56,220 nt of DNA from Microcaldota archaeon (GCA_021827605.1 JAKAVF010000024.1:1-56220), one strand, 5' to 3'. Shown: positions 3,809-56,220, counted from the first letter of the stretch. A program made the numbers and translations. The notes: a model not told the origin generated them from the letters alone.

Positions 3809-5110
3809 CTAAGAACCGGTCGGCGAATAGTTTGGATATGCGTATACTGCCATAGACATCGGGCCGCATGCACCGAGTGGGAGAAAGAACCCTTTCTGTG
3901 GTAGTTTACAGAGTATATTAGCTGAAATATCGGCGTAATATGTGCCAGGTGCCTGCGACTGGCATGTTGCAAGGAACGCTTCGTCTCCATTGCTGTCAGT
4001 GGCTGCCCGCCTTTGCGTGCAGCCTGATGGCCAGGTAACTGAGCACGTGAGGCCATAGTTAAAGTAATCGCCGCATGCTGCGGTTATGACGACAAAGGAG
4101 TTCGAGTTGGATAGTGTATAGTTTATTGAACCCGTGGTCGGGCTGCCGTCCTCTGGCGGAATCAAAGCCTGCTTATTTATCACAGGTACAGGTGCTTTAG
4201 TCAAGCCTATTGTAGCTAGTGCGCCGGTTGGCGGTATTTTGCATGCGGAGATCCTGCAGTTAAGTACTTGATTAAGACCGCAAAAAGCTGTGTTGCGCCC
4301 TATCGCTGTTGTATTTGTTGAAGCGTCTTCAGCGTCAACGGAGTAGTTCGGCGCAATCGGCCCATATGCGTAAAGGTTTATGGCACCAGCGCAGATATAA
4401 CTGGCAAAGGAACCGGTTAGCGTATCGTTGATTGGAAGATCGCCGGTTGCGCTCCCCGTCATGAACGATGCTGACACAGTCGTGGTTGTGGTGGTGCTAG
4501 TAGTGGTCGAGCCTCCGGTAGACGTTGTGGATTGCGTTGCCCCTCCGGATTTTCCTACGGTGATGTATGGGGATGCAATCTGCTCTAGTATCCAACCGTT
4601 CTGCCCCCCTTCCGGACCAGGTGCGGTTGTGTATCTCACCCACAGTATCCCGCTGAACGCAGTTCCTATCGGCTGGTTTCCGAGCGCCGCACCGGTATTG
4701 CTGTAGCATGGGGTGTTGTTTACCTGCAAGGTCGTGCCGCTGTCCAACTCATACGCATTTCCAGGCGTATAGGAGGTCTTCGGCACCCCGCTCGCATTGA
4801 GATAGACCCACGCGTTAGACGGGTACGGCCCGCCGGTTGAATCTGTCCCGGTTGTGCATGCGACCGCGACGTTGTACTCGTTGTATCCGTTGTTCTGCCC
4901 AAGGAGAAACGATACAGTTCCATTTGTCGCGAGCGCCAGGTCAGTGCAGGTGTAATGGAACTTCACGTTGCATTGGTTGCCGACTATCCCGCTAGGGGCA
5001 AATACGCCGATGATGTAAAGGACCGCGAGCACTATCAGTATGATCAGGATGGCCCATCCATATGTCATGAGGTATTCCATCGCGCTCTGCGCCGCCCTTC
5101 CTCTTTCCAT
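3809..5110 (-). CDS. Class III-signal pilin/adhesin paralogue P1 (large)
   Basis: About 433 residues. The N-terminus has the class III signal motif (AQSAMEYLMTYGWAI) followed at once by a hydrophobic helix (ILIILIVLAVLYIIGVF), as in archaeal type IV pilins cleaved by an EppA-like peptidase before the Gln. The head domain has four Cys seen in all paralogues here (QC..TC, VAC, PCY) and the block LWVRYT. A Thr/Ser/Gly linker (residues about 205-225) leads to a second Cys-rich domain ending YPNYSPTGS, shared only with P2 at 9689. ATG at 5110 is preferred to 5119 because the TATA-like TTATTAAC at 5141 predicts transcription starting near 5117. The first 208 bp after the signal start are almost identical to the partial gene at 55992. 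Adhesin role inferred. Confidence 0.75.
   Translation of the reverse strand: MERGRAAQSAMEYLMTYGWAILIILIVLAVLYIIGVFAPSGIVGNQCNVKFHYTCTDLALATNGTVSFLLGQNNGYNEYNVAVACTTGTDSTGGPYPSNAWVYLNASGVPKTSYTPGNAYELDSGTTLQVNNTPCYSNTGAALGNQPIGTAFSGILWVRYTTAPGPEGGQNGWILEQIASPYITVGKSGGATQSTTSTGGSTTTSTTTTTTVSASFMTGSATGDLPINDTLTGSFASYICAGAINLYAYGPIAPNYSVDAEDASTNTTAIGRNTAFCGLNQVLNCRISACKIPPTGALATIGLTKAPVPVINKQALIPPEDGSPTTGSINYTLSNSNSFVVITAACGDYFNYGLTCSVTWPSGCTQRRAATDSNGDEAFLATCQSQAPGTYYADISANILCKLPQKGFFLPLGACGPMSMAVYAYPNYSPTGS
4885..5092 (-). repeat. Inverted near-identical copy of 56013-56220
   Basis: Read on the minus strand, this segment of P1 matches 56013-56220 (plus) with two differences in 208 positions, both near 4994-5000 (GCCCCT here, ACCCCG there). 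The match starts just inside the pilin signal peptide and still continues at the right window edge, so its full length is unknown. Synonymous sites are conserved, unlike between other paralogues, so the copies are recent or homogenised. Confidence 0.95.
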
Positions 5111-5246
5111 AGACAACATGTAGCGAATAGGAACGCATCTTTATTAACGTTTTGCAAAAGCGGCAACCCGCTACCCGATTTGCCATCTGTTCGAGGGAAA
5201 GTAATAAATAAGCCTATTCCTAACTATTCCTGCGACCGGTGTACAC

Positions 5247-9688: not shown

Positions 9689-10972
9689 TTATGAGCCGGT
9701 CGGGGTGTAATCTGGGAATATATAGGCGCCGTCTGTCAACGCGGTTGGGCATGGCTGCGCTTTGCATGCCGGCACGGCGACGCATGTTTTAGTGATTTGA
9801 CAACTTACAGAATAATTGAAGTAGTATATAGGCCCAACTGCCTGGGACTGGCAAGTCGCTATATAAACACTGTCAAAGCCAACTGCATCGGTCAGGCTCT
9901 GCCTCTGCGTGCATCCTGTCGGAAGAGATGCTGCGCTGCACGGGCCATACTCAAATCCGCACGTGCCGACAAGGACTACGAACGAGTTAGCCGTAGATAC
10001 TGTATAAGATACGTTAACATACAAGTTTCCTCCTGTACCGTTCTTTAAGTACGTTGAATAAGTGGGCGACCCATTCAATCCTATTGCTGCAATGGTAAGG
10101 TTTGGAGGCGTGCTTGAGGTAGTGGCGCTGCAGCCTGATGATGAATGGCCTATTGATGAATATGGGCCGCCGCTCACAGAATCTTGCTGATCCACGGTCC
10201 ATGCTGCGGTTATTCCTGGATACGGCGAGATGTTCCCACCGCTGGCCACACCGCCGCATATGTAAAGGGAGTATTTACCAGGGGTTTCATTCAACGACGT
10301 TGTTGCAGATGTTCCCGATGCGGTTAGATATGTCCCCTGTATGCTCGTCGTAGAAGAGGTCGCGGTGGTGCTAGTAGTGGTCGAGCCTCCGCCGCTGCCG
10401 CTTCCGGATCCGCCTGCGCCTACAGACACCTGTACTGAGGCAACTTCAGAAAGCACAGTGGGGTTAGCCCCTCCTGGGGTTCCAGGCAGGTTCGTATATT
10501 TTATCCATAGGAATCCGGTGAATCCGGCACCGTACTTCTGGCTTCCGAGAAGAGAGCCTGTGCTGCTATAGCAAGGAATGTTGTTAACCTGCGCAAACGT
10601 ACCGCTCTCAAAAAGGTATGTGTTTGAATAGGGATAGGATGATTTAACCGCGCCGGTGGAATTGAGGTACATCCATGCGGTTGACGGATTAGGACCTCCA
10701 GTTGCATTCTTCGTCTGCGTGCACGCTACGGCTATATTATATTCCGTCGTCCCGCTGTTTTGGCCGAGCAGGAACGATACGCTGCCGTTTGTCGCAAGAT
10801 GGAGGTTCTGGCACGAATACTTGAATAGGGCATTGCACTGCGTTCCAAGTATCTTGTTCGGTGTAAAGATGCCAAGAATGTAGAGCACGGCCAGCACGAC
10901 AAGTATGACGATGATTGCCCATCCATAGGTCATAAGGTACTCCATTGCGCTCTGCGCTTTCCTGCCAGTCAT
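9689..10972 (-). CDS. Class III-signal pilin/adhesin paralogue P2 (large)
   Basis: About 427 residues, with the same plan as P1: class III motif AQSAMEYLMTYGWAI, hydrophobic helix, head domain with the four conserved Cys (QC..SC, VAC, PCY) and LWIKYT, a Gly/Ser/Thr linker at about 198-218, then a second Cys-rich domain ending FPDYTPTGS. ATG at 10972 is chosen because a TATA-like ACTTTAAAG sits right at the upstream alternative ATG (11002). Unlike the P1/P8 pair, the DNA of the signal region differs at many synonymous sites from P1, so this duplication is older. Twenty-eight bp in the linker (10364-10391) are nevertheless identical to P1. Confidence 0.75.
   Translation of the reverse strand: MTGRKAQSAMEYLMTYGWAIIVILVVLAVLYILGIFTPNKILGTQCNALFKYSCQNLHLATNGSVSFLLGQNSGTTEYNIAVACTQTKNATGGPNPSTAWMYLNSTGAVKSSYPYSNTYLFESGTFAQVNNIPCYSSTGSLLGSQKYGAGFTGFLWIKYTNLPGTPGGANPTVLSEVASVQVSVGAGGSGSGSGGGSTTTSTTATSSTTSIQGTYLTASGTSATTSLNETPGKYSLYICGGVASGGNISPYPGITAAWTVDQQDSVSGGPYSSIGHSSSGCSATTSSTPPNLTIAAIGLNGSPTYSTYLKNGTGGNLYVNVSYTVSTANSFVVLVGTCGFEYGPCSAASLPTGCTQRQSLTDAVGFDSVYIATCQSQAVGPIYYFNYSVSCQITKTCVAVPACKAQPCPTALTDGAYIFPDYTPTGS
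10364..10391 (-). repeat. 28-bp linker block shared with P1 (4490-4517)
   Basis: The two linker-coding segments are identical over 28 bp and diverge on both sides. They encode the Gly-Gly-Ser-Thr-rich joint between the head domain and the C-terminal domain in P1 and P2. Confidence 0.85.
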
Positions 10973-11129
10973 TCGGACACATTCACTTAATGGAAAAGCC
11001 ATCTTTAAAGTCTTTCTGTAATCCGGCTTTTGCTGATTTGGTCAGGCTTTATCAACAAAATTCGGCTCTTTCGGTAAAGCCACGTAGACGTGCGCCTGAA
11101 GTGCAAGCTGAAGTTCCCCAAACTAAATA

Positions 11130-37213: not shown

Positions 37214-37255
37214 TTGTGAAAGAAAGGATATACCTGATACTAGGAAGTGTTTTTT

Positions 37256-37720
37256 ATGGCAACACCAAACATTAATCCATCGAATCCACCGAAGAAGCCA
37301 CAGCCTGCCGCGCAGTCATCGAGCGGCGAGCAGTTGGACGAGCTGCGCTACATGCACCAGATATACCAAAACCAATATGCGTCCATAGCAAGCGAGATAA
37401 GCACCAGGCTCGATGCACTGAAGAACTTCCAGAACACACAGCAAACTCTGGAGAATATAGACGCGGTAGTAAACAAGAACCTTCTCCTTGGGCTAGGCGG
37501 CGGCGCATATGCCAGTGGTACCATAACGAATCAGAACAGCGTGGTTGTGAACGTCGGCGGGGGTTTCCTTGTAGAGAAGGATATAGACAGCGCGAAGGGA
37601 TACGTTGCAAAGGCGATCGACAACACGACGAATGCGATAAACCAGCTGACTAAGGACAGGAGGGAGCTGGAGCGTGTATTGCTCGAGATTGCATACAGGA
37701 TAGAAGCGATCTCCCACTGA
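37256..37720 (+). CDS. pfdA: Prefoldin subunit alpha
   Basis: About 154 residues. The two coiled-coil helices (about 27-70 and 110-150) flank a beta hairpin region with KNLLLGLGGGAYASGTI and VVVNVGGGFLVEKDIDSA, diagnostic of prefoldin alpha. The first 25 residues are Pro/Asn/Gln-rich. It binds unfolded proteins with the beta subunit and passes them to the thermosome. ATG 37256 is preferred; GTG/TTT-rich codons upstream would add MFF. It is followed 14 bp later by ftsY, the common archaeal order. Confidence 0.93.
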   Translation: MATPNINPSNPPKKPQPAAQSSSGEQLDELRYMHQIYQNQYASIASEISTRLDALKNFQNTQQTLENIDAVVNKNLLLGLGGGAYASGTITNQNSVVVNVGGGFLVEKDIDSAKGYVAKAIDNTTNAINQLTKDRRELERVLLEIAYRIEAISH

Positions 37721-37734
37721 TTCTGGGTCATAAA

Positions 37735-38931
37735 ATGTTCGACGGATTGAAGAGGAAGCTTTCAGAAGCTGTAAAGATATTCGCCAAGAAAGAGGAAAAG
37801 GAGATTGAGAAGGAGATAGAAGCAAGGGAAGAGAAAGCTGATGTGGTAGGGCCGAAGGCGGCAGGTGAAATTGAGGAAAGTGCCGCACCCAAACAGCAGC
37901 AACCGGCGCAACAGGCTAAACAGGAGGAAGAGATTCCCTCTGCCCCTGAGCTACAACCAGTCGAATCGAAGAGAGAAGTAAGGGAAGAGAAAAAAGGGGA
38001 AGAGAAGGGCAACAAGGAGCTGCTCAAGCTATCGCTAAAGACGAAGATAAAGGGGGTCTTCACAAGTAATGTAGCTCTTGGTGACAGGGAGATAGACGAC
38101 TTTCTAGAAAACCTGAAGTTGTCCCTCCTCCAATCGGATGTCTCTTTTGAGGCTACGGAAGCGTTCCTCGAGGATCTCAGGGGGAACCTCAAGTCAACTA
38201 AGCTTGACTCAAGAAACATACAGGGGAATCTTATCGACGCGGTCAGAAAGTCGCTATTCGACATACTTGCAAAGAGTGGAAGGGGAGTAGATATAAAGCA
38301 GTTTGTAAAAGAGAGGGTTGCCGCAGGTGACATACCTGTGAAGATACTTTTCCTTGGTCCAAACGGCACCGGAAAGACCACAACTATAGCAAAGATCGCC
38401 CACACATTCAAGAGCGAAGGCATAAGCAGCGTGATGTCAGCCAGCGATACGTTCCGAGCTGCAGCGATCGAGCAGACCGAGCACCACGCAGCGAAAGTCG
38501 GCGTACCCGTCATAAAGAGCAAGTACGGCGCAGATCCTGCAAGCATAGCTTTCGATGCCATAGCCTATGCGAAGTCGCACAGCATACAGGCGGTGCTCAT
38601 CGACAGCGCAGGGAGGCAGGAGACAAACAAGAACCTTATCAAGGAGATGGAGAAGATGGTACGCGTTGCACAGCCGAATATAACGATTTTTGTAGGCGAG
38701 AGTACAACGGGTAATCAGCTATCCGAGCAGGTGCGCGAATTCGCCAAATTCATGAGGATAGACGGGATAATACTCACAAAGCTGGACGTTGATGCGAAAG
38801 GAGGAAATGCGATATCCATCGCATACACAACCGGCATTCCGCTTCTCTATCTTGGCACAGGGGAGTCGTATGACGCTCTCGTCAGGTACACCCCAGACTT
38901 CATAGTGGACTCGATTCTCCCGAACAACTAA
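37735..38931 (+). CDS. ftsY: Signal recognition particle receptor FtsY
   Basis: 398 residues. The acidic Glu/Lys/Gln-rich A region (1-95), N domain (about 96-190) and G domain: LFLGPNGTGKTTT (about 206-218), SASDTFRAAAIEQ, IDSAGRQ and TKLDVDAKGG, with GTGESYDAL near the C-terminus. It is the membrane-associated GTPase that receives SRP and delivers nascent membrane proteins to the translocon. It is the last gene of the block; the pilus ATPase follows 33 bp later. Confidence 0.96.
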   Translation: MFDGLKRKLSEAVKIFAKKEEKEIEKEIEAREEKADVVGPKAAGEIEESAAPKQQQPAQQAKQEEEIPSAPELQPVESKREVREEKKGEEKGNKELLKLSLKTKIKGVFTSNVALGDREIDDFLENLKLSLLQSDVSFEATEAFLEDLRGNLKSTKLDSRNIQGNLIDAVRKSLFDILAKSGRGVDIKQFVKERVAAGDIPVKILFLGPNGTGKTTTIAKIAHTFKSEGISSVMSASDTFRAAAIEQTEHHAAKVGVPVIKSKYGADPASIAFDAIAYAKSHSIQAVLIDSAGRQETNKNLIKEMEKMVRVAQPNITIFVGESTTGNQLSEQVREFAKFMRIDGIILTKLDVDAKGGNAISIAYTTGIPLLYLGTGESYDALVRYTPDFIVDSILPNN

Positions 38932-38964: not shown

Positions 38965-40281
38965 ATGGACCAGAAGCTCTACGCGATAGAGGACCTTGTG
39001 CTAAAGCAGCTTGTTGGAAAGTTCGCTGAACACTCCGAAGACGAAAACCGGAAAACATTCATATACACAGCGGCAAAGAACATAAAGCCGGACATAAGCG
39101 AGAGCGAGCTTGGGGAGATTTACGCTGACGTCAACGACCTTGCCCCGATAAAGGACCTGTTAGAATCGAATACTATAGAGGACATAACGGTCAACAACAC
39201 TAAGAACATCTACGTCTTTGACTCGCTCCGCGGATTCGTCAAGCTTGATGCGAGCTTTGACAGCCAGGAGAAGCTAAACAGGTTTGTCGGGAAGCTCAAG
39301 CTATATGCGACCAACCAGCAGGCCCACGGCAAGATAATGGACGTGCATATGCCGAGCGGAAGCAGGGCGAACATAATAACATCGCCGGTCGGATACGATG
39401 TTACCATAAGGAACTTCAAGCAGAAGCCGCTCAGCATAATAGACCTGATCAACAACAGGACCCTTGACTACAAGATCGCATCAAGACTATGGCTGTACGT
39501 TGACGGGCTCAGGGTGAAGCCGGCCAACCTTATGATAGGCGGGATTCCCGCATCCGGGAAGACGACGCTGCTCAACACTCTCTTCTCGTTCTTCAGGCCG
39601 GAAAAGAGGATTGTCACAATAGAGGAAACATACGAGCTAAACACAGAGGCGCACGACAACACGGCCAGGCTGGAGACGAACACTGACCTCCCCATGACTG
39701 AGCTAGTCAAGAACGCGCTTAGGATGAGGCCGGACCTTATAATTATAGGGGAGATAAGGGGCGCAGAGGCGAACGACCTTGCCATGGCCATGAACATAGG
39801 GAAGATAAGCATGGGTACGATACACGCATCGACAAGCAGGGACGTGATACTCAGGCTTGAGCACTCGCCGATGGACGTGCCCAGGGACATAATCCCAGTG
39901 ATAGACGCGATAGTTGTGGTTTCATCGCTCTACAGGGACGGCAAGCCGCAGAGGAAGGTAGTCCAGATATCGGAGATATCCGGCATTGAGACCCAGGTGC
40001 TCCTCTCCGACGTGTTCAAGTACGACTACAAGACGAACCAAGCAGCACCGATGATGCCGAGCATAACCTACAGGGACAATCTCTCAAAGATGGTCGGCGT
40101 GTCTCCTTCCGAGATCCTTGCAGAGGAGGCAGTGCGCGCCAGGATACTAGAGCAGCTTAATATAATGGGCAAGCGCGACATGAAGAGCATAAGCGAGGCG
40201 GTCAGCGCATACTACGACAACCCGGAGGCGCTTCTCAGGTCTCTCGGACTTGGCCAGCTGTCGCCAGCCGTGCCGGTATAA
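38965..40281 (+). CDS. Type II/IV secretion-pilus ATPase (GspE/TadA/FlaI superfamily)
   Basis: 438 residues. Walker A GGIPASGKTT near 192-201, the Asp box VTIEETYELN, Walker B LIIIGEIRGAEAND near 255-268 and the His box MGTIHASTSRD are all present. This is the motor family for type IV pilus, archaellum and secretion systems. It is convergent (24 bp) with the five-pilin operon at 40306-43849, so it is a good candidate motor for those pilins. No TadC platform protein, prepilin peptidase or FlaH follows. Confidence 0.93.
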   Translation: MDQKLYAIEDLVLKQLVGKFAEHSEDENRKTFIYTAAKNIKPDISESELGEIYADVNDLAPIKDLLESNTIEDITVNNTKNIYVFDSLRGFVKLDASFDSQEKLNRFVGKLKLYATNQQAHGKIMDVHMPSGSRANIITSPVGYDVTIRNFKQKPLSIIDLINNRTLDYKIASRLWLYVDGLRVKPANLMIGGIPASGKTTLLNTLFSFFRPEKRIVTIEETYELNTEAHDNTARLETNTDLPMTELVKNALRMRPDLIIIGEIRGAEANDLAMAMNIGKISMGTIHASTSRDVILRLEHSPMDVPRDIIPVIDAIVVVSSLYRDGKPQRKVVQISEISGIETQVLLSDVFKYDYKTNQAAPMMPSITYRDNLSKMVGVSPSEILAEEAVRARILEQLNIMGKRDMKSISEAVSAYYDNPEALLRSLGLGQLSPAVPV

Positions 40282-40305: not shown

Positions 40306-41130
40306 TTACGACATCCTACTCCTTAAGTAAAGTACGATTATTACGATGATTATTATCACTACTGCTATCAGGATTATCAGCGGGGATGACAGTGGGAGAA
40401 GCGCGCTGCCGGGCACTGTTGTTGATCCTATGGTAGTTGTACTTACTGTAGAGCTTCCACCGCCAGAAACCGTAGTTGTCCTTACCGTAGTGCTGCTGCC
40501 GCCACCTGTCTTGTTCCCATAAGCATTGGTGGACTCGACGCTGACCTGCGCTGTGACCGACGCAAGCTGCACTGTTATCCATTTATTGGTGGTGCTGTTC
40601 TCAGGGCCAGCGTTTGCGGTATATCTCGCCCAGAGAATCCCGGTAAACGATGTTCCTGAGCTCAGGAATGCACCGTTGGCAAGGAGGCTGCCGTCATTCC
40701 CATAGCACGGCAGGTTGTTGATCTGGATTTTGACACTGCTCTGGAGTGCATATGCGCTCAAGGAATTATAGGTTCCAGAAAGCGTGAGATTGTTGTTAAA
40801 GTAGTACCATGGGCTCGTGGATGAGAAAGGCCCACCCGTCGTCGTATTCGTCGATTCCGTGCAGGCGAATGCAATATTGTATTCCGGCACCTCTGTGTTC
40901 TGCCCACCTGTGAAAGATACTGTTCCGTTTGATGCAAGGCTTGGATTTGCGCAGTAGTAGTTGAAGTTCGCATTGCACGATGTGCCGAAGACGGATCCGG
41001 GGCTGAACACGTGCAAGAGATAAAGTATTCCAAGGACAACCAGTATGACAAGTATGGCCCATCCATAGGTCATGAGATATTCCATCGCGCTTTGCGCTCT
41101 GTCAATTCTATTCCTGTGCAACAAAATCAC
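40306..41130 (-). CDS. Class III-signal pilin paralogue P3 with C-terminal membrane helix
   Basis: 274 residues, GTG start directly after the P4 stop. Signal motif AQSAMEYLMTYGWAI (residues 12-26), helix ILVILVVLGILYLLHVF, head domain with the conserved Cys (SC..YC, FAC, PCY), block LWARYT. After a Thr/Ser/Gly-rich linker (about 208-240) the protein ends with a second hydrophobic helix (LIILIAVVIIIIVIIVLYLR) and a short basic tail. A pilin with both ends in the membrane cannot assemble in the usual way unless the C-terminus is cleaved, which makes it unusual; it may be a base or anchor subunit. Confidence 0.8.
   Translation of the reverse strand: MILLHRNRIDRAQSAMEYLMTYGWAILVILVVLGILYLLHVFSPGSVFGTSCNANFNYYCANPSLASNGTVSFTGGQNTEVPEYNIAFACTESTNTTTGGPFSSTSPWYYFNNNLTLSGTYNSLSAYALQSSVKIQINNLPCYGNDGSLLANGAFLSSGTSFTGILWARYTANAGPENSTTNKWITVQLASVTAQVSVESTNAYGNKTGGGSSTTVRTTTVSGGGSSTVSTTTIGSTTVPGSALLPLSSPLIILIAVVIIIIVIIVLYLRSRMS
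40999..41067 (-). repeat. 69-bp block identical to 43727-43795
   Basis: The segment encoding the transmembrane part of the signal region in P3 is identical over 69 bp to that in P7, though the two genes differ elsewhere and P4-P6 between them differ at many synonymous sites. It suggests local gene conversion. Confidence 0.9.
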
Positions 41131-41733
41131 TCACCTGGCTGACCCGATCTGTACTGAAATGGTTCCGACCTGCGAAATCAGATAGGGATTGGATATGCTG
41201 TTCGCACCAGGGCCATCAGTGTACTCCACCCAGACTTTCCCGTTGATCTGGGTTCCAATCGGCAATGGTGCCAATGATGTGCCAAGCGGGTTTCCATTGA
41301 CATCATAACACTGGAGATTCCTTATCGTCGATATTGTTCCGCTGTCGAGCGATAGCGACTTTGAGGGGATTGGCTGCACTGCGCTAACATTTCCGCTAAG
41401 GTTTGCATATTCCCATGGGCTTGTCATATTTGCGAACGGCTCCCCAGTAGTAAGGTTTGTCGCCTGAGTGCACGCAAACGCAAGGTTATACTCTGTATTT
41501 CCACTGGTCTGCGCAAATTCGAACGAAAGCGCGCCTGTTGCATTTATCGCGGGAAGCTGGCAAAGGAACTTCGCATTCGGTGAGCAGGTATTTCCTACAT
41601 ATCCCGAGGGATTGAAAACATTGAACAGGTAGAGGACAGCAAGGACTATCACTATGATGATTATGGCCCATCCATAGGTCATGAGATACTCTATCGCGCT
41701 CTGCCCCTTTCTATTTCCATTTATATAATTCAT
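41131..41733 (-). CDS. Class III-signal pilin paralogue P4
   Basis: About 200 residues, ATG at 41733 sharing one base with the P5 stop (TAATG). Signal motif GQSAIEYLMTYGWAI, helix IIIIVIVLAVLYLFNVF; head domain with the Cys set (TC..LC, FAC, QCY), KVWVEYT and the C-terminal SNPYLISQVGTIS. It has no Thr linker and no C-terminal extension, so it is a minimal form of the family: signal plus head domain. Confidence 0.8.
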   Translation of the reverse strand: MNYINGNRKGQSAIEYLMTYGWAIIIIVIVLAVLYLFNVFNPSGYVGNTCSPNAKFLCQLPAINATGALSFEFAQTSGNTEYNLAFACTQATNLTTGEPFANMTSPWEYANLSGNVSAVQPIPSKSLSLDSGTISTIRNLQCYDVNGNPLGTSLAPLPIGTQINGKVWVEYTDGPGANSISNPYLISQVGTISVQIGSAR

Positions 41734-42332
41734 TATGATACACCTACTGTGGTGCTGAGGGTCGCAACCTGCGTATCGATATACGGGTTGGATGTGCTGT
41801 TCGCGCCTGGCGCATTGGTGAACTTCACCCATATCTTTTCGGTTATTGGTGCACCTACCTGCACCTTAGATGAATATGGCGAGTTCGGGATATTCCCATT
41901 CTGGTCGAAGCACTGCAGGCTGTTCACCGTGATGGTCTGCTCGGTCTGCATGAACTTTGGCTCACCGAAAGAGAGGTATTTCACTTGCGTTAGAAAGCCG
42001 GTAGAATTCATGTAGTACCAAACACCCCCAGAATTGACTTTTGTGAGGTTCGCAAACGGCTCTCCGGTCGTGACGTTCTGCGCATCCGAGCATGCAAACG
42101 CAAGGTTATATTCAGTGGAGCCTGTGTTCTGACCGAACGTGAACGTCAAGAGCCCGTTCGTCGTTATGTATGGAGCAAGGCATTGATACTTGAAATTAGC
42201 AGAACAGGTTGTCCCTACAAGGCCGCCTGGATTGAATACGTTCAACAGGTAAAGGACGCCTAGTACGACGAGAATGATGATTATGGCCCATCCATATGTC
42301 ATCAGGTATTCCATCGCGCTTTGCGCTCTCAT
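41733..42332 (-). CDS. Class III-signal pilin paralogue P5
   Basis: About 199 residues. ATG 42332 (MRAQS) is preferred to a TTG six codons upstream. Signal AQSAMEYLMTYGWAI, helix IIIILVVLGVLYLLNVF; Cys set TC..QC, FAC, QCF; IWVKFT and SNPYIDTQVAT. A minimal form like P4. It lies 18 bp after P6 or slightly more with the later start and overlaps the P4 start by one base, so translational coupling is likely. Confidence 0.8.
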   Translation of the reverse strand: MRAQSAMEYLMTYGWAIIIILVVLGVLYLLNVFNPGGLVGTTCSANFKYQCLAPYITTNGLLTFTFGQNTGSTEYNLAFACSDAQNVTTGEPFANLTKVNSGGVWYYMNSTGFLTQVKYLSFGEPKFMQTEQTITVNSLQCFDQNGNIPNSPYSSKVQVGAPITEKIWVKFTNAPGANSTSNPYIDTQVATLSTTVGVS

Positions 42333-42368
42333 GCTGTTCTCTTCTTCCAAATATTCACCATTGGTGTA

Positions 42369-43133
42369 TCATGCTTTTTGTGCTGGTGCAGATGCTGCTA
42401 CTGTCGTAGTTGTTGATGTCGTAGACGAACTCTGAGATGAGGATATCCTTGTGCTTACTGTTGCAGCCTGCGTCACTATATACGGATTTGACGTAGTGTT
42501 TGCTCGCCCTGGTCCATTTGTGTACTTGAGCCATATCGTCCCGGTGAATGGCGTCCCGACCGCAAGCTGGGAAGGTACGGAGGTTGAAGCTGCAGTAGTC
42601 GTTGTGCTCGTTGTCGTGCTAGCAATTATTGCGGAAGCGTAACTCTGGAATTCTAAAACATGGCCATTGCTTATGACCGCGCTTCCCTTAAGCGCTATCC
42701 CATTTATGTCATAGCAAGTTATCCCATTTATGTAGACAAACTTGTTAGTGTAGAGGACATAGGCATTTGTTTGGCTGTAGGTGTTCGAGAGCGATCCGTC
42801 TGCGCCAAGGTACTCCCATGGGTTTCCGCCTCCTGCAACATACGGCTGTCCTGAACTTAAGTTGGAGCCTGCAGTGCAAGCGAACGCGAGGTTGTACTCT
42901 GTCGCCCCGGTATTCTGGCCGAACAGGAATGAGAGCTGCCCATCAGCTGCGAGCACCGGCGTCTGGCATACATACTTGAACTGTGGAGTGCACACCGATC
43001 CTATGAGTGAGTTCGGAGTGAACACGTTCAGCAGGTACAATATCCCTAGCACGACGAGAATTATGATTATGGCCCATCCATATGTCATAAGGTATTCCAT
43101 CGCGCTTTGCGCTCTGGTTTTTGCATTTATCAT
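42369..43133 (-). CDS. Class III-signal pilin paralogue P6 with two Thr/Ser tracts
   Basis: 254 residues. Signal AQSAMEYLMTYGWAI, helix as in P5; Cys set VC..VC, FAC, TCY; IWLKYT and SNPYIVTQAAT. A Thr/Ser/Ala insert (about 168-190) interrupts the head domain between the fourth Cys and the IWLKYT block, and a second tract forms the C-terminus. The same insertion site is used in P7 but not in P4 or P5. Thr-rich tracts may be O-glycosylated or act as spacers. Confidence 0.8.
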   Translation of the reverse strand: MINAKTRAQSAMEYLMTYGWAIIIILVVLGILYLLNVFTPNSLIGSVCTPQFKYVCQTPVLAADGQLSFLFGQNTGATEYNLAFACTAGSNLSSGQPYVAGGGNPWEYLGADGSLSNTYSQTNAYVLYTNKFVYINGITCYDINGIALKGSAVISNGHVLEFQSYASAIIASTTTSTTTTAASTSVPSQLAVGTPFTGTIWLKYTNGPGRANTTSNPYIVTQAATVSTRISSSQSSSTTSTTTTVAASAPAQKA

Positions 43134-43144
43134 TCTATCACCGA

Positions 43145-43849
43145 TTAACTAGAAGTAACGCTCACAGTAACATATGCGATCTGCTTCGCGTTCCACGGGT
43201 TGCCGGCGCTTCCTGGTGTCCCCTGGTCCTTCGTATATCTTATCCAGAGGTTGCCACTGAACTGCGTATTCAATGGGAGCACTGCACCTGACTTTACTGT
43301 TGAGGTGGTGTTGGTACTTGTTGTCGTGCTTGTCGTAGTTGTTGTGGATGTGTTGTAGCCCGAGAATGAGTACACCACATGCAAAGCATGGCTGGAAACC
43401 GGCATCAATAGCGTTCCGGTTGTGCCGAAGCACGGCAGGTTGTTGACGTTCAGCTTTACCCCGCTTGAGAGCGTATATGTGCTGCTTGAGTTGTAAGAGG
43501 TCTTGAGGGAGCCTGTGCTATTCACATAATACCACGGGCTGGTGCCGTTTGTGAACGGTCCTCCCGACGTTGAGTTCGTCGATGCGGTGCATGCAAGCGC
43601 GATGTTGTAGTAGTTCTGTCCGGTATTCTGGCCTATAAGTACGGAGAGCTCTCCGCTTGTAGACATGACCGGCGTCTGGCACAGGTATCCAAAGTTCACT
43701 ATGCACTGATTGCCAATCACTGAATTGGGGCTGAACACGTGCAAGAGATAAAGTATTCCAAGGACAACCAGTATGACAAGTATGGCCCATCCATATGTCA
43801 TAAGGTATTCCATCGCGCTTTGCGCTTTAGTATTTAGATTCGGTCGCAT
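43145..43849 (-). CDS. Class III-signal pilin paralogue P7, first gene of the array operon
   Basis: 234 residues. Signal AQSAMEYLMTYGWAI, helix ILVILVVLGILYLLHVF identical to P3; Cys set QC..LC, LAC, PCF; LWIRYT. A Thr/Ser/Asn tract at about 170-192 interrupts the head domain as in P6. A TATA box at 43881-43890 precedes it; gaps to P6, P5, P4 and P3 are 11, 18, 0 and 0 bp, so the five genes are probably one transcript. Confidence 0.8.
   Translation of the reverse strand: MRPNLNTKAQSAMEYLMTYGWAILVILVVLGILYLLHVFSPNSVIGNQCIVNFGYLCQTPVMSTSGELSVLIGQNTGQNYYNIALACTASTNSTSGGPFTNGTSPWYYVNSTGSLKTSYNSSSTYTLSSGVKLNVNNLPCFGTTGTLLMPVSSHALHVVYSFSGYNTSTTTTTSTTTSTNTTSTVKSGAVLPLNTQFSGNLWIRYTKDQGTPGSAGNPWNAKQIAYVTVSVTSS
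43727..43795 (-). repeat. 69-bp block identical to 40999-41067
   Basis: Copy in P7 of the block described in P3, covering the transmembrane part of the pilin signal region. Confidence 0.9.
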
Positions 43850-43880: not shown

Positions 43881-43890
43881 GTTTAAAAGG
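43881..43890 (-). promoter_or_regulatory. TATA box of the five-pilin operon
   Basis: Minus strand CCTTTTAAAC lies 32-41 nt before the P7 ATG at 43849. No other convincing TATA element lies between the five pilin genes, consistent with one transcript. Confidence 0.5.
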
Positions 43891-43912: not shown

Positions 43913-45049
43913 CTACGGCAGGAAATCCTTGTTCCTTATTTTCTCCCTTATATAATCGCCAACAAAAGTGAGGCGCGGGCCCTGCAGCGTATCCTGCTCG
44001 AGCTTCTGCTTCAGCTTCAGGACAAGCTTAAGCTCTTCGACCCATTCCTTGTGCCTGCTTATCCATGGATAGTTGAGCATTTCCTGCGCCCTCTTCAGGT
44101 CGACGTCACTTGCCTTGAGTGTCATTTTCTTCAAGAAATCGTACTTTTCCAGGTCTGACATAGTTACTCCTATGAACCTCGCCTCAGGAGTCGCTATGTC
44201 GCCTCCGATGTAAGCGAGGTTTATGCTGCCGGTCTTTATTGTCCAGTAGATGTACCATCCCCATGCGTCTCCATCGTTGAATACATATACCGGAAGGCCC
44301 ATGTCGGCAAACTTCCTTATCATCCTTCGCGTTCCCCTTGTCGCCTGGCCGCCAGGCGTGAGTAGGATACAGTTCTCCTTCTTCCAGAAACCATCCTCGT
44401 TGAGCCTCTGCCAGATTGCATCCTTCTCTACTACAAGCACATATTTTGCTTTTACGCCTACGAACTCTATCTCATTGTCAACGTCGCTCGGGATAGCCCA
44501 TCCGCTCCTTCCCATCTTGCTCGCGTCTATCTCTATCTTCTCCCCTCCGAAAGTGTCCATGACTTTCATGTTCCCGACAAGCACTCCCTTCCTCGTCGCG
44601 TTAAGGTTCAGGTCCTCCCTCCTTATGCCGAGCGAGGCCTCGAGGTCTTCTATGAGAGGGTTTGACTCTGCCTGTTCGCTGAATATGTTCTCGTCTACAT
44701 CCTCCCCAAGCGAGTACTTGAGCTGGTAGAAGAGACCTCTTATGCTCGTGTGCAGGTTCTCGACTATGAACTTGTGGCACTTTGTGGCGATTGCCACTGT
44801 CTGCATGAACCTCTTGGTCTGGGCGGTGTTTATGAAGCTCCGCTCCTCCCTGTTCTTCCCTACTGTAAGGAATCCCCTCTTCTCATCAAAAGTTATGTTG
44901 GACTTTGTCCTTGCAAGGGTGCTGAACTTCGGCGCCTTCCTCGCCATTATCTCCTCGGCTATCTCCTCCCCGAAGCCCTCAAGCATCTTTCTCGGCTTGC
45001 CGTCCTTACCCTTTTCATCTCTCTTTCCGTCCTTCATGTTCCTCCCCAA
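43913..45049 (-). CDS. top6A: DNA topoisomerase VI subunit A
   Basis: 378 residues. The winged-helix region has the catalytic Tyr108 in TSIRGLFYQLK; the Toprim domain has VVEKDAIWQRL and the acidic cluster VFNDGDAWGWYIY. It is the DNA-cutting subunit of the type IIB topoisomerase and relative of Spo11. The B (ATPase) subunit normally lies next to it, but here the neighbour 1 bp upstream is lonB, so top6B must be elsewhere. The first 25 residues are a Lys/Gly-rich extension. Confidence 0.95.
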   Translation of the reverse strand: MGRNMKDGKRDEKGKDGKPRKMLEGFGEEIAEEIMARKAPKFSTLARTKSNITFDEKRGFLTVGKNREERSFINTAQTKRFMQTVAIATKCHKFIVENLHTSIRGLFYQLKYSLGEDVDENIFSEQAESNPLIEDLEASLGIRREDLNLNATRKGVLVGNMKVMDTFGGEKIEIDASKMGRSGWAIPSDVDNEIEFVGVKAKYVLVVEKDAIWQRLNEDGFWKKENCILLTPGGQATRGTRRMIRKFADMGLPVYVFNDGDAWGWYIYWTIKTGSINLAYIGGDIATPEARFIGVTMSDLEKYDFLKKMTLKASDVDLKRAQEMLNYPWISRHKEWVEELKLVLKLKQKLEQDTLQGPRLTFVGDYIREKIRNKDFLP

Positions 45050-45050
45050 T

Positions 45051-47093
45051 TTATGAAGACTTCAGGTACTTCCTGAGCTCTGCTATTATCTCGTCCCTTC
45101 TTTTTGTCTTCTTCAGGGAGTGCTCAATCACCTCTGCTATGGTTTTTACTGGAATAAGCTTCACCTTCTTCCTGAGATCTGCGCTGAGGTAAACGTCATC
45201 AAGATTCTTCGCAGGTAGTATAACGGTAGCAATCCCGTCCTTTATCGCGGCACGCACCTTGTTCGTGACGCCGCCGACAGGAAGCACCTCTCCCCTGACG
45301 GAGAGCGATCCTGTCATCGCAACGCTCTGGTCAACCGGTATGCCTTCCATGGCGGATATGATGCTGATTGCAAAGATCGGAATTGCACTGTCGCCCTCTA
45401 CTCCTTCATATGCCTGTAAGAACTGCACATGCATGTCGTAGTTCGCTATGTCCCTTCCCATGTGCTTTTTGATTATTGCGCTGACGTTCTTGACGGCCTC
45501 TGTCGCTATCCTTCCGAGCTTGCCGGTAGGTATGAACTTGCCTTCAGCCCGTGATCCTGCAGGCGTCACCTCTGCAACTATAGGCATAACTATCCCGGGA
45601 GAGAGGACTGTGCCTCCGACGACGGCAAGGCCATTTACCTTTCCGACTGCAAAGCCCTTCGTAGTGAAAACACGGTACTCCTTCCTGTAGTCGACCAGCT
45701 GCGATACAACCTGCGCCTCTATAGGATTCGCAAGGTCCCTTCCTGCTATCACGTCGTCTTTTGTTACAAGCGCATGGTGCCTCTCAACCGCTATGTCACC
45801 TGCTGCCCTAACGAGCCCGCCAAGGTCCCTTAGCACAAGGGTCAGCTTGCCCTTTCTTCCGCTCCTTACGCGCGCCTCCTCTATCATTTCTTCTACAGCG
45901 CCCCTGTCAAAGTGCGGGATCTTGCCGTCCTTCTTTATCTCCTGCGCTATGAACTGTATTATCTTCTCTTCATTGGCCGGAGTATCTGCCAGCGATTCAT
46001 CCATGTACACCTCGTATCCGTAACCCCTTATCCTTGATCGCAGCGCTGGGTGCATGTGCTGGACGTCGCCGAGGTTGCCAGCTGCAACCAGTATGAAGTC
46101 GCACGGCACGGGCTCTGTTTTGACTAGTGCGCCGGAGCTCATCTCGCTCTGCCCTGTTATAGAATACTTCTTCTCCTGCATGGCTGTTAGGAGGTCCTGC
46201 TGGGACTTTGGCTCCAGCCTTGATATCTCGTCTATGTAAAGGACTCCTTTGTTCGCCTTGTGCACGGCTCCGCTCTCAACCCTCAGGTGCGCCGGCGTGC
46301 CAAGCCCTCCGCTCTGGAGTGGGTCGTGCTTGATGTCTCCGAAGATTGCGCCTGCTCTTGAGCCAGTCGCATCCTGGTATGGCGCGTGCGTCATGCCAGT
46401 ATTGTCAACTATCAGTTTCGGCTCGTTGAAGTCGCCCATTCCCGGAAGCCCTACTCTTCTGGTCAGACCTGATGTGAAGAGCGCGATAGAGCCGAAGACA
46501 AGTATTCCCAAGATCAGCGCAGCTATTACTATTATCTCGTACCCGCTTACAAGGCCCGAAAGGGATATCCCTATGAGTATGATTACAACGAGCAGGATTA
46601 TCGGGGTTATCATGGATCCTCCGCGGGTGAGCGCCATCCTGTTCTTCGCCCTCTCCCTCTGCAGTATCTGCCTTCCCTGACCGTCGCCAAGCTTCTCGCC
46701 TACCGCCTGGTGCGGATACGTCTTGACAGCTTTTACTATAGGGACGTTCTCGTCGTTCACATTCCTGTAGACAAGAACATCTTCAAGGTCTGTGATGGGA
46801 AGCATCTCAGCCATGGCCTGCGCCAGCATGGTCTTTCCAGTCCCTGGGCTGCCGATTAGAAGGACATGCCTCCTCTGCTTCGCTGCCTTCTTTATAATCT
46901 TGACCGCGTTCTCCTGACCTACAACCTGGTCTATCAGCTTGTCAGGAATCTGCACATCTGCGGTGCTCTTCAGATTCTTGAGAGTCGTGTGCTTCTCCTG
47001 CTTCTTTTCAGCGGCAGCTGCCATTGCCTGCGCAGCCGGTGCTGTCGCAGGGTTTTGTTTTGCGTCTTTCTTCGGTATCGCCCTCTTGGCCAT
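45051..47093 (-). CDS. lonB: Archaeal membrane-bound Lon protease (LonB)
   Basis: About 680 residues. Walker [12 protein letters not shown] near 78-88; a membrane region within the ATPase module with two helices (about 158-180 and 185-210: [18 protein letters not shown] and [17 protein letters not shown]), typical for LonB; AAA sensor regions; C-terminal protease with the catalytic Ser in EGDSAIPIF (about 567) and Lys in [11 protein letters not shown] (about 609). ATP-dependent degradation of abnormal membrane and soluble proteins. The first 45 residues are Ala/Gln/Lys-rich. It probably shares a transcript with top6A. Confidence 0.95.
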
Positions 47094-47135
47094 CATGAAT
47101 CACTATAAGTCGCAAACTAAGATACGACATTAAGG

Positions 47136-55712: not shown

Positions 55713-55991
55713 AAAACGCACGTATTCACACTATCTTTTACAATACAGTATAAATCACTTTGTAACATTCTCCAGCCTGTCGTTTAGAAGTGGGTAGAAC
55801 CTGAATTTATACGCCCCTGCGGAATCCATGTTATTCGTATCGTCATTCACATTTTTATATCCTTTTTGTTCTGCGGTTCGCTCTCATCCCATTCCTGAAG
55901 GATGTTGGATCTCCCGCTCGTCTTGCTAAAACCACAGTTTCTGACTCCAATAAGATATATAAATGCAATCTGGTATTTCTATCTGTTTTAT
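55713..55991. other. Intergenic region with two tiny minus-strand frames
   Basis: The gap between GlyRS and the last pilin shows no tRNA or recognisable gene. On the minus strand a 31-codon frame (GTG 55850 to TGA 55755) follows directly on another short frame that ends at 55846 (ATGTGA overlap) and has no start codon; the second encodes a Lys/Glu/Asp-rich peptide. Both could be remnants or chance. The promoter of the last pilin overlaps this stretch. Confidence 0.3.
55953..55965 (+). promoter_or_regulatory. TATA box of pilin P8
   Basis: AGATATATAAATG lies 27-39 nt before the ATG at 55992, a strong archaeal TATA element; the message is probably leaderless. Confidence 0.65.
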
Positions 55992-56220
55992 ATGAGGAAA
56001 GGCGAATACGCAGCGCAGAGCGCGATGGAATACCTCATGACATATGGATGGGCCATCCTGATCATACTGATAGTGCTCGCGGTCCTTTACATCATCGGCG
56101 TATTTACCCCGAGCGGGATAGTCGGCAACCAATGCAACGTGAAGTTCCATTACACCTGCACTGACCTGGCGCTCGCGACAAATGGAACTGTATCGTTTCT
56201 CCTTGGGCAGAACAACGGAT
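55992..56220 (+). CDS. Class III-signal pilin paralogue P8, cut by window edge
   Basis: The first 76 codons of a pilin. MRKGEYAAQSAMEYLMTYG... carries the class III signal and the same transmembrane helix (ILIILIVLAVLYIIGVF) as P1; the mature head starts with QCNVKFHYTC. From codon 8 onward the DNA matches P1 with two differences in 208 bp; only the first 7 codons and the upstream region differ. Its promoter is different from that of P1. Whether the C-terminal domain is the same is not visible here. Confidence 0.85.
   Translation, partial: MRKGEYAAQSAMEYLMTYGWAILIILIVLAVLYIIGVFTPSGIVGNQCNVKFHYTCTDLALATNGTVSFLLGQNNG
56013..56220 (+). repeat. Inverted near-identical copy of 4885-5092
   Basis: Matches the minus strand of 4885-5092 at 206 of 208 positions, 51 kb away and in opposite orientation. 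The match still holds at the window edge. Confidence 0.95.

What the first reader, a model, noticed from the sequence alone, without database searches (positions are those of the whole stretch)
40306..43849. Operon of five tandem class III pilins convergent with a pilus ATPase
P7-P6-P5-P4-P3 are one probable transcript with gaps of 0-18 bp. Each has the QSAMEYLMTYGWAI signal and a head domain with four conserved Cys (C-x6-C, AC, then C[YF]), a QN[TS]GxxEYN box and a G-x-[LIVA]-W-x-[YF]-T box. I do not know this head domain under any name. With P1, P2, P8 and P9 there are nine such proteins in 56 kb. The ATPase at 38965 is a candidate motor, yet neither a TadC-like platform nor a prepilin peptidase is nearby. 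This may be a new type IV pilus family of DPANN archaea.
Basis: partly seen in the sequence, partly recalled or inferred. Interest (0 to 1): 0.65.

Follow-up and report, generated by a model that had tools for sequence, protein, structure and literature searches.

The report
Pilin gene cluster of ultrasmall archaea
Five side-by-side genes in a tiny host-dependent type of archaeon encode building blocks of hair-like surface fibres (type IV pili) from a pilin family that no public database names yet; close relatives already grow in the lab with their hosts, so it can now be tested whether these fibres are how such archaea grip a host.

Summary
P3-P7 (window 43849 to 40306, minus strand) are five intact, closely packed pilin-type genes. 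The cluster, with the convergent ATPase, is conserved gene for gene in a sister species under strong purifying selection (dN/dS 0.06-0.14). The genome is a Micrarchaeota. The head domain matches nothing in Pfam, NCBIfam or PDB sequences but is almost universal in its order. AlphaFold gives a type IV pilin shape (helix plus beta-sandwich); the best PDB fold match, an archaeal type IV pilus, is weak (E 0.01). Cysteines covary as C1-C2 and C3-C4.

The 'missing' parts lie elsewhere in the genome: an A24 prepilin peptidase and an ATPase/split-TadC/pseudopilin locus. About 23 class III proteins are spread over the genome, several carrying LamG, beta-propeller, Kelch or DUF2341 domains.

The ATPase link is weaker than thought: in most relatives that ATPase sits in a conserved housekeeping block without pilins, and a complete relative lacks it but keeps the pilins.

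Verdict: a new pilin family of a known machine, probably host-adhesion pili. Type IV pili in Micrarchaeota were already reported (Mia14); the passages I read do not describe this pilin family.

The parts
43145..43849 (-). P3: prepilin (class III signal, TM helix, head domain with Thr-rich insert), first gene of the cluster
   Evidence: orthologue in L072, dN/dS 0.056
42369..43133 (-). P4: prepilin, head with Thr-rich insert and tail
   Evidence: dN/dS 0.079; GGTGAT Shine-Dalgarno-like site
41733..42350 (-). P5: prepilin, simplest form (signal + head); TTG start at 42350 or ATG at 42332
   Evidence: AlphaFold model of mature P5, mean pLDDT 83.5, pTM 0.74; dN/dS 0.061
41131..41733 (-). P6: prepilin, start overlaps P5 stop (TAATG)
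   Evidence: dN/dS 0.069
40306..41130 (-). P7: prepilin with an extra C-terminal transmembrane segment and basic tail; GTG start directly after P6 stop
   Evidence: the only such tail among 150 class III proteins besides its own orthologue; dN/dS 0.143
43881..43888 (-). possible archaeal TATA box (TTTTAAAC) about 35 nt before the P3 start; weak, by eye
   Evidence: sequence; not tested
38965..40281 (+). stand-alone VirB11/TadA-type ATPase (438 aa; Walker A GIPASGKT, IIGEIRG, GTIHA); candidate but unproven motor
   Evidence: Pfam T2SSE 6e-31; closest solved relatives 2oap, CpaF, FlaI; motifs; distribution
37247..38931 (+). prefoldin-like gene and ftsY: ancestral neighbours of the ATPase, not pilus genes (names from own knowledge of the sequences)
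   Evidence: synteny
43913..47096 (-). topoisomerase VI A-like and Lon-like genes: ancestral convergent neighbours of the ATPase; the pilin cluster lies between them and the ATPase (names from own knowledge of the sequences)
   Evidence: synteny
3809..5119 (-). P1: same signal and head plus Thr-rich linker and an unknown 220-aa C-terminal domain
9689..11002 (-). P2: as P1; C-terminal domain 31% identical to that of P1
23524..24372 (-). P8: class III signal plus LamG/ConA lectin-like domain, a different head
   Evidence: Pfam Laminin_G_3 9.2e-20
55902..56220 (+). P9: start of a P1-like pilin, cut off by the contig end
   Evidence: 211 nt at 98.6% identity to P1

Best explanation
P3-P7 are structural subunits of an adhesive archaeal type IV pilus. 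Each is made with a short leader ending in [KRA][GA], cut before QSA[MI]EYL by the single A24 prepilin peptidase encoded on contig C15. The mature protein has a hydrophobic N-terminal helix that packs into the filament core, and a disulfide-stabilised beta-sandwich head (pairs C1-C2 and C3-C4) on the outside. Filaments are built by machinery encoded in trans, most likely the C6 locus (ATPase, two half-length TadC-like proteins, pseudopilins). The stand-alone ATPase next to the cluster may be an alternative motor. Several similar pilins, and related pilins carrying lectin-like, propeller, Kelch or DUF2341 domains, would decorate the filaments and bind surfaces, most likely the host archaeon. 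P7, with its second membrane segment, may cap or anchor the filament base. Shown: gene structure, conservation, predicted fold, presence of peptidase and platform genes. Inferred: cleavage, assembly, filament, host binding, role of P7.
For: Five intact genes conserved in order in a sister species with dN/dS 0.056-0.143. AlphaFold model of P5: helix 3-26 then beta-sandwich, pLDDT 83.5; best PDB fold match is the Pyrobaculum archaeal type IV pilus 8fk7, probability 0.96 but E 0.01. C78 and C138 are lost together in 19 of 20 departures among 67 homologues while C40 and C48 never are, as expected for two disulfides. Genome-wide: A24 peptidase over its Pfam cut-off with a GGAD motif; C6 locus with ATPase, two T2SSF-like proteins and class III-type pseudopilins, same layout in a relative (L195). 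25 homologous places in the genome, several with LamG, DUF2341, Kelch or propeller domains. Family present in 80 of 83 sampled genomes of its own taxonomic family and 72 of 78 of the sister family (my count).
Against: No experiment shows cleavage, secretion or filaments for any member. The fold match is below significance. TadC-like hits in the own genome are below Pfam's cut-off (22-23 bits against 25.2). The head also occurs in a protein without a class III signal (L040, C19:89090), so it is not exclusively a pilin domain. The motor is not settled.
Confidence: 0.7

Rival explanations
1. The adjacent stand-alone ATPase is the dedicated motor of this pilin cluster, using a TadC platform supplied from elsewhere.
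For: Convergent adjacency kept in the sister species. In other relatives class III genes lie directly beside the ATPase on the same strand: overlapping its end by 4 nt (G055, L206), 2 nt after it (G135, L203), or upstream (G008 L204, G020 L192). Over 55 loci pilins are more frequent at +/-1 gene (10/108) than at +/-4 to 6 (8/275), Fisher p 0.012; pilin calls there are a regular-expression heuristic and the loci are not independent.
Against: In most loci the ATPase sits in the prefoldin-ftsY block with no pilin. No TadC found in the fetched flanks of 55 loci. The complete genome G056 (A_DKE) lacks the ATPase but has the pilins.
Confidence: 0.25
2. The proteins use the class III route but do not form long pili: they are single or short pseudopilus surface receptors, as in the Sulfolobus bindosome.
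For: Large C-terminal cargo domains on many members; a C-terminal membrane segment in P7; head domain also in a Sec-signal protein (L040).
Against: The basic members (P5, P6 and most of the 67 homologues) are plain 160-210 residue helix-plus-head proteins, as major pilins are; thin filaments that could be pili were seen on ARM-1 cells (PMC11329633), and ARM-1 (G017) carries the family.
Confidence: 0.2
3. The array is a store of variant cassettes for switching the expressed head (antigenic variation).
For: P3 and P7 share about 70 identical nucleotides in the helix while the heads align at about 66%; P1 and P9 share 211 nt at 98.6%, consistent with recombination.
Against: All five genes have their own start and ribosome-binding context and all are under purifying selection; gene order and identity are the same in the sister species, so no recent shuffling of heads is seen.
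Confidence: 0.07

Closest known systems
Archaeal type IV pili (euryarchaeal clade 2 / PilA type and clade 1 systems of Makarova et al. 2016, PMC4858521)
   Same: class III signals, A24 peptidase, VirB11-family ATPase plus TadC, many pilins encoded away from the ATPase/TadC locus, DUF2341 proteins as putative tip adhesins
   Different: head domain of a family not in Pfam or NCBIfam; two half-length TadC-like genes in C6; an extra ATPase without TadC; a large pilin set for a 0.97 Mb genome
Type IV pili of Ca. Mancarchaeum acidiphilum Mia14 (PMC5498576)
   Same: same phylum; two type IV pilus systems, a single FlaK-like peptidase, LamG proteins linked to pilus loci
   Different: the passages I read name no pilin family and do not describe this cluster; not compared gene by gene here
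Type IV pili of the ultrasmall episymbiont Nanosynbacter lyticus TM7x (PMC12206443)
   Same: ultrasmall host-dependent cell, two pilus systems, a pilin with a C-terminal beta-propeller as candidate adhesin, demonstrated role in host binding
   Different: a bacterium; analogy of function only, no homology of the head tested
Pyrobaculum calidifontis type IV pilus (PDB 8fk7)
   Same: best fold match of the P5 model (probability 0.96)
   Different: E 0.01, low TM-score, 10% identity; no detectable sequence relation

Membership tests
archaeal type IV pilin | class III signal with cleavage site before a hydrophobic helix | tested here: met
   [KR][GA]|QSA[MI]EYL in P2-P7, AA|Q in P1. Pfam's Class_IIIsignal model did not hit P3-P7 at E 1, so this rests on the motif
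archaeal type IV pilin | N-terminal helix followed by a beta-rich head | tested here: met
   AlphaFold model, (prediction, not a structure)
archaeal type IV pilin | processing by an A24 prepilin peptidase | tested here: inconclusive
   peptidase gene present; cleavage itself not testable
archaeal type IV pilin | assembly into a filament | not testable with these tools
   needs protein work; only thin filaments on ARM-1 in the literature
type IV pilus machine | secretion ATPase plus TadC platform in the genome | tested here: met
   C6 locus; T2SSF hits below the curated cut-off in this genome, above it in the relatives checked
type IV pilus machine | ATPase next to the pilins has its own TadC | tested here: not met
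   none in the fetched flanks of 55 orthologous loci
archaellin / S-layer domain | match to the known family models | tested here: not met
   no Pfam or NCBIfam hit for 67 homologues

The most novel reading that the evidence does not exclude
This order of Micrarchaeota runs a host-recognition pilus system of its own: one lineage-specific pilin head, a constant filament helix kept alike between paralogues by recombination, and a set of interchangeable adhesin-tipped pilins, served by two or three ATPases (one stand-alone) that share platform and peptidase.
Probability: 0.2. Interest if true: 0.75.

Novelty: new member of a known kind. Interest (0 to 1): 0.48.

Why it matters
How DPANN archaea recognise and hold their hosts is open; pili-like links have been seen by microscopy, but pilins have rarely been assigned (a Nanohaloarchaeota study states that none were annotated, PMC9563170). 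This work gives a concrete, searchable pilin family present in nearly all sampled genomes of the order, including two that are in co-culture (ARM-1 and A_DKE), plus a list of adhesin-bearing pilins. It turns 'pili-like structures' into proteins that can be looked for by mass spectrometry or antibody.

Tried and rejected
Pfam and NCBIfam scans of the heads: nothing above cut-off. PDB sequence search with the family profile: nothing. BFVD fold search: nothing significant, so no viral origin suggested. AlphaFold of the C-terminal domain of P2 with four homologues: pLDDT 39.7, discarded, not searched further. Bacterial promoter scan: not applicable to archaea, ignored. Operon as a chance run: rejected. 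Recent gene conversion between P3 and P7: the 99-nt helix segment differs by 6 within this genome, 7 within the sister and 7-11 between them, so conversion is possible but not dated; not claimed. The S-layer paper of Ca. M. harzensis is not held.

Full report
What is there. The five genes P3-P7 are real and intact: 43145-43849, 42369-43133, 41733-42350 (or 42332), 41131-41733, 40306-41130, all on the minus strand. Spacing is 11, 18 (TTG start) or 36 (ATG start), -1 and 0 nt; GGTGAT and GGTGAA precede the starts of P4 and of P5 (TTG), and AGGTGA lies directly at the P7 start. A convergent ATPase gene ends 24 nt from P7. Some motif details in the finding are loose (see observation check), and P8 belongs to another head type, LamG.

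Conservation. A sister species (MAG DBS1-1.bin129, locus L072) keeps Lon, topoVI-A, P3, P4, P5, P6, P7, ATPase, ftsY and the prefoldin-like gene in the same order, at about 85% DNA identity. Orthologous pilins are 85-91% identical in protein with dN/dS 0.056-0.143 at dS 0.64-0.92. These are working genes.

Lineage and distribution. With the signal removed, the head profile matches 167 of 295 sampled genomes of the phylum; by my count from the table 80 of 83 in the own family, 72 of 78 in the sister family of the order, and 15 of 134 others. Whether it occurs outside the phylum was not searched to the same depth.

Structure. AlphaFold on mature P5 with 67 sequences gives helix 3-26 followed by about eight strands, pLDDT 83.5, pTM 0.74. 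Foldseek's first PDB match of 350,542 chains is an archaeal type IV pilus, 8fk7 (probability 0.96, E 0.01, TM below 0.4), so this supports but does not prove the fold. In the 67 homologues the first two cysteines are invariant, and the third and fourth are lost together in 19 of 20 cases: predicted disulfides C40-C48 and C78-C138 of mature P5.

Machinery. The genome (971 kb, 52 contigs, 91.5% complete) holds one A24 prepilin peptidase on C15 with a GGAD motif, and on C6 an ATPase, two T2SSF-like proteins of 241 and 265 aa, and several class III-type small proteins. The C6 layout, including the DNA ligase-like neighbour, recurs in relative G051 (L195). The complete relatives checked also have a second ATPase/TadC locus with clear T2SSF scores; this genome and its sister lack it in their assemblies. 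Nothing in the window is needed to explain the 'missing' platform and peptidase.

The ATPase beside the cluster. It is a VirB11/TadA-type ATPase with all catalytic motifs, with orthologues at 53-68% identity in about 80 of 85 family genomes. In most of them it lies after prefoldin and ftsY and, in many, faces topoVI-A and lon. The pilin cluster therefore sits inside an old convergent junction. Pilin-type genes do turn up next to the ATPase in several other relatives, once overlapping its end by 4 nt (G055) and once starting 2 nt after it (G135), and are mildly enriched there (10/108 against 8/275, p 0.012). A_DKE lacks the ATPase while keeping family pilins. So it is a plausible but dispensable pilus motor.

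Repertoire. The profile finds 25 places in this genome, about 23 with class III-type signals. Many have a Thr-rich linker and a further domain: LamG (P8, L034, L037), DUF2341 (L027, L028), Kelch (L024), beta-propeller (L033, weakly L038), Gly-rich (L030), and an unknown domain in P1, P2 and L023. Ten relatives carry 8 to 30 matches each. DUF2341 is proposed as a tip adhesin in archaeal pili (PMC4858521), and a propeller-bearing pilin is the candidate adhesin of host-binding pili in the ultrasmall bacterium TM7x (PMC12206443). By analogy I infer that these pili serve adhesion, most likely to the host.

Literature. Mia14 was reported to have two type IV pilus systems, one FlaK-like peptidase and LamG proteins linked to pilus loci (PMC5498576). 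ARM-1 shows thin filaments that could be pili (PMC11329633), while the connecting nanotubes there come from the host. A_DKE contacts show thin filaments ascribed mainly to the host (PMC8975820). None of the passages read names this pilin family.

Verdict. A new, order-wide pilin family within the known archaeal type IV pilus kind, not a new machine. Confidence 0.7 that P3-P7 are pilins assembled in trans; 0.25 that the neighbouring ATPase is their dedicated motor.

Noticed in passing
window 55902-56220: The contig ends inside a P1-like pilin gene, 211 nt at 98.6% identity to P1: an assembly break at a pilin repeat, so further pilins may be missing from the assembly.
   Followed up: partly
window 40306-41130 (P7): P7 and its orthologue are the only ones of 150 class III proteins checked with a C-terminal membrane segment and basic tail; possible anchor or cap.
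   Followed up: partly
L040 (G000 C19:89090-89230): The head domain occurs in a 666-aa protein with an ordinary Sec-type signal instead of a class III signal, so it can serve outside pili.
   Followed up: no
G011 C1:581313-603725: Array of about ten class III proteins of 290-310 aa, the length of the LamG pilins; a larger expansion than in the window.
   Followed up: no
G000 and G129 whole genomes: Both lack the ATPase/TadC locus with strong T2SSF scores that the complete relatives have; loss or incomplete assembly.
   Followed up: partly
L095, L102, L139, L144: Four MAG records titled Marsarchaeota carry this Micrarchaeota family; possibly mislabelled or contaminated bins.
   Followed up: no
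window 43720-43822 and 40990-41094: P3 and P7 share about 70 identical nucleotides in the helix region while the heads align at only about 66%; gene conversion possible.
   Followed up: partly
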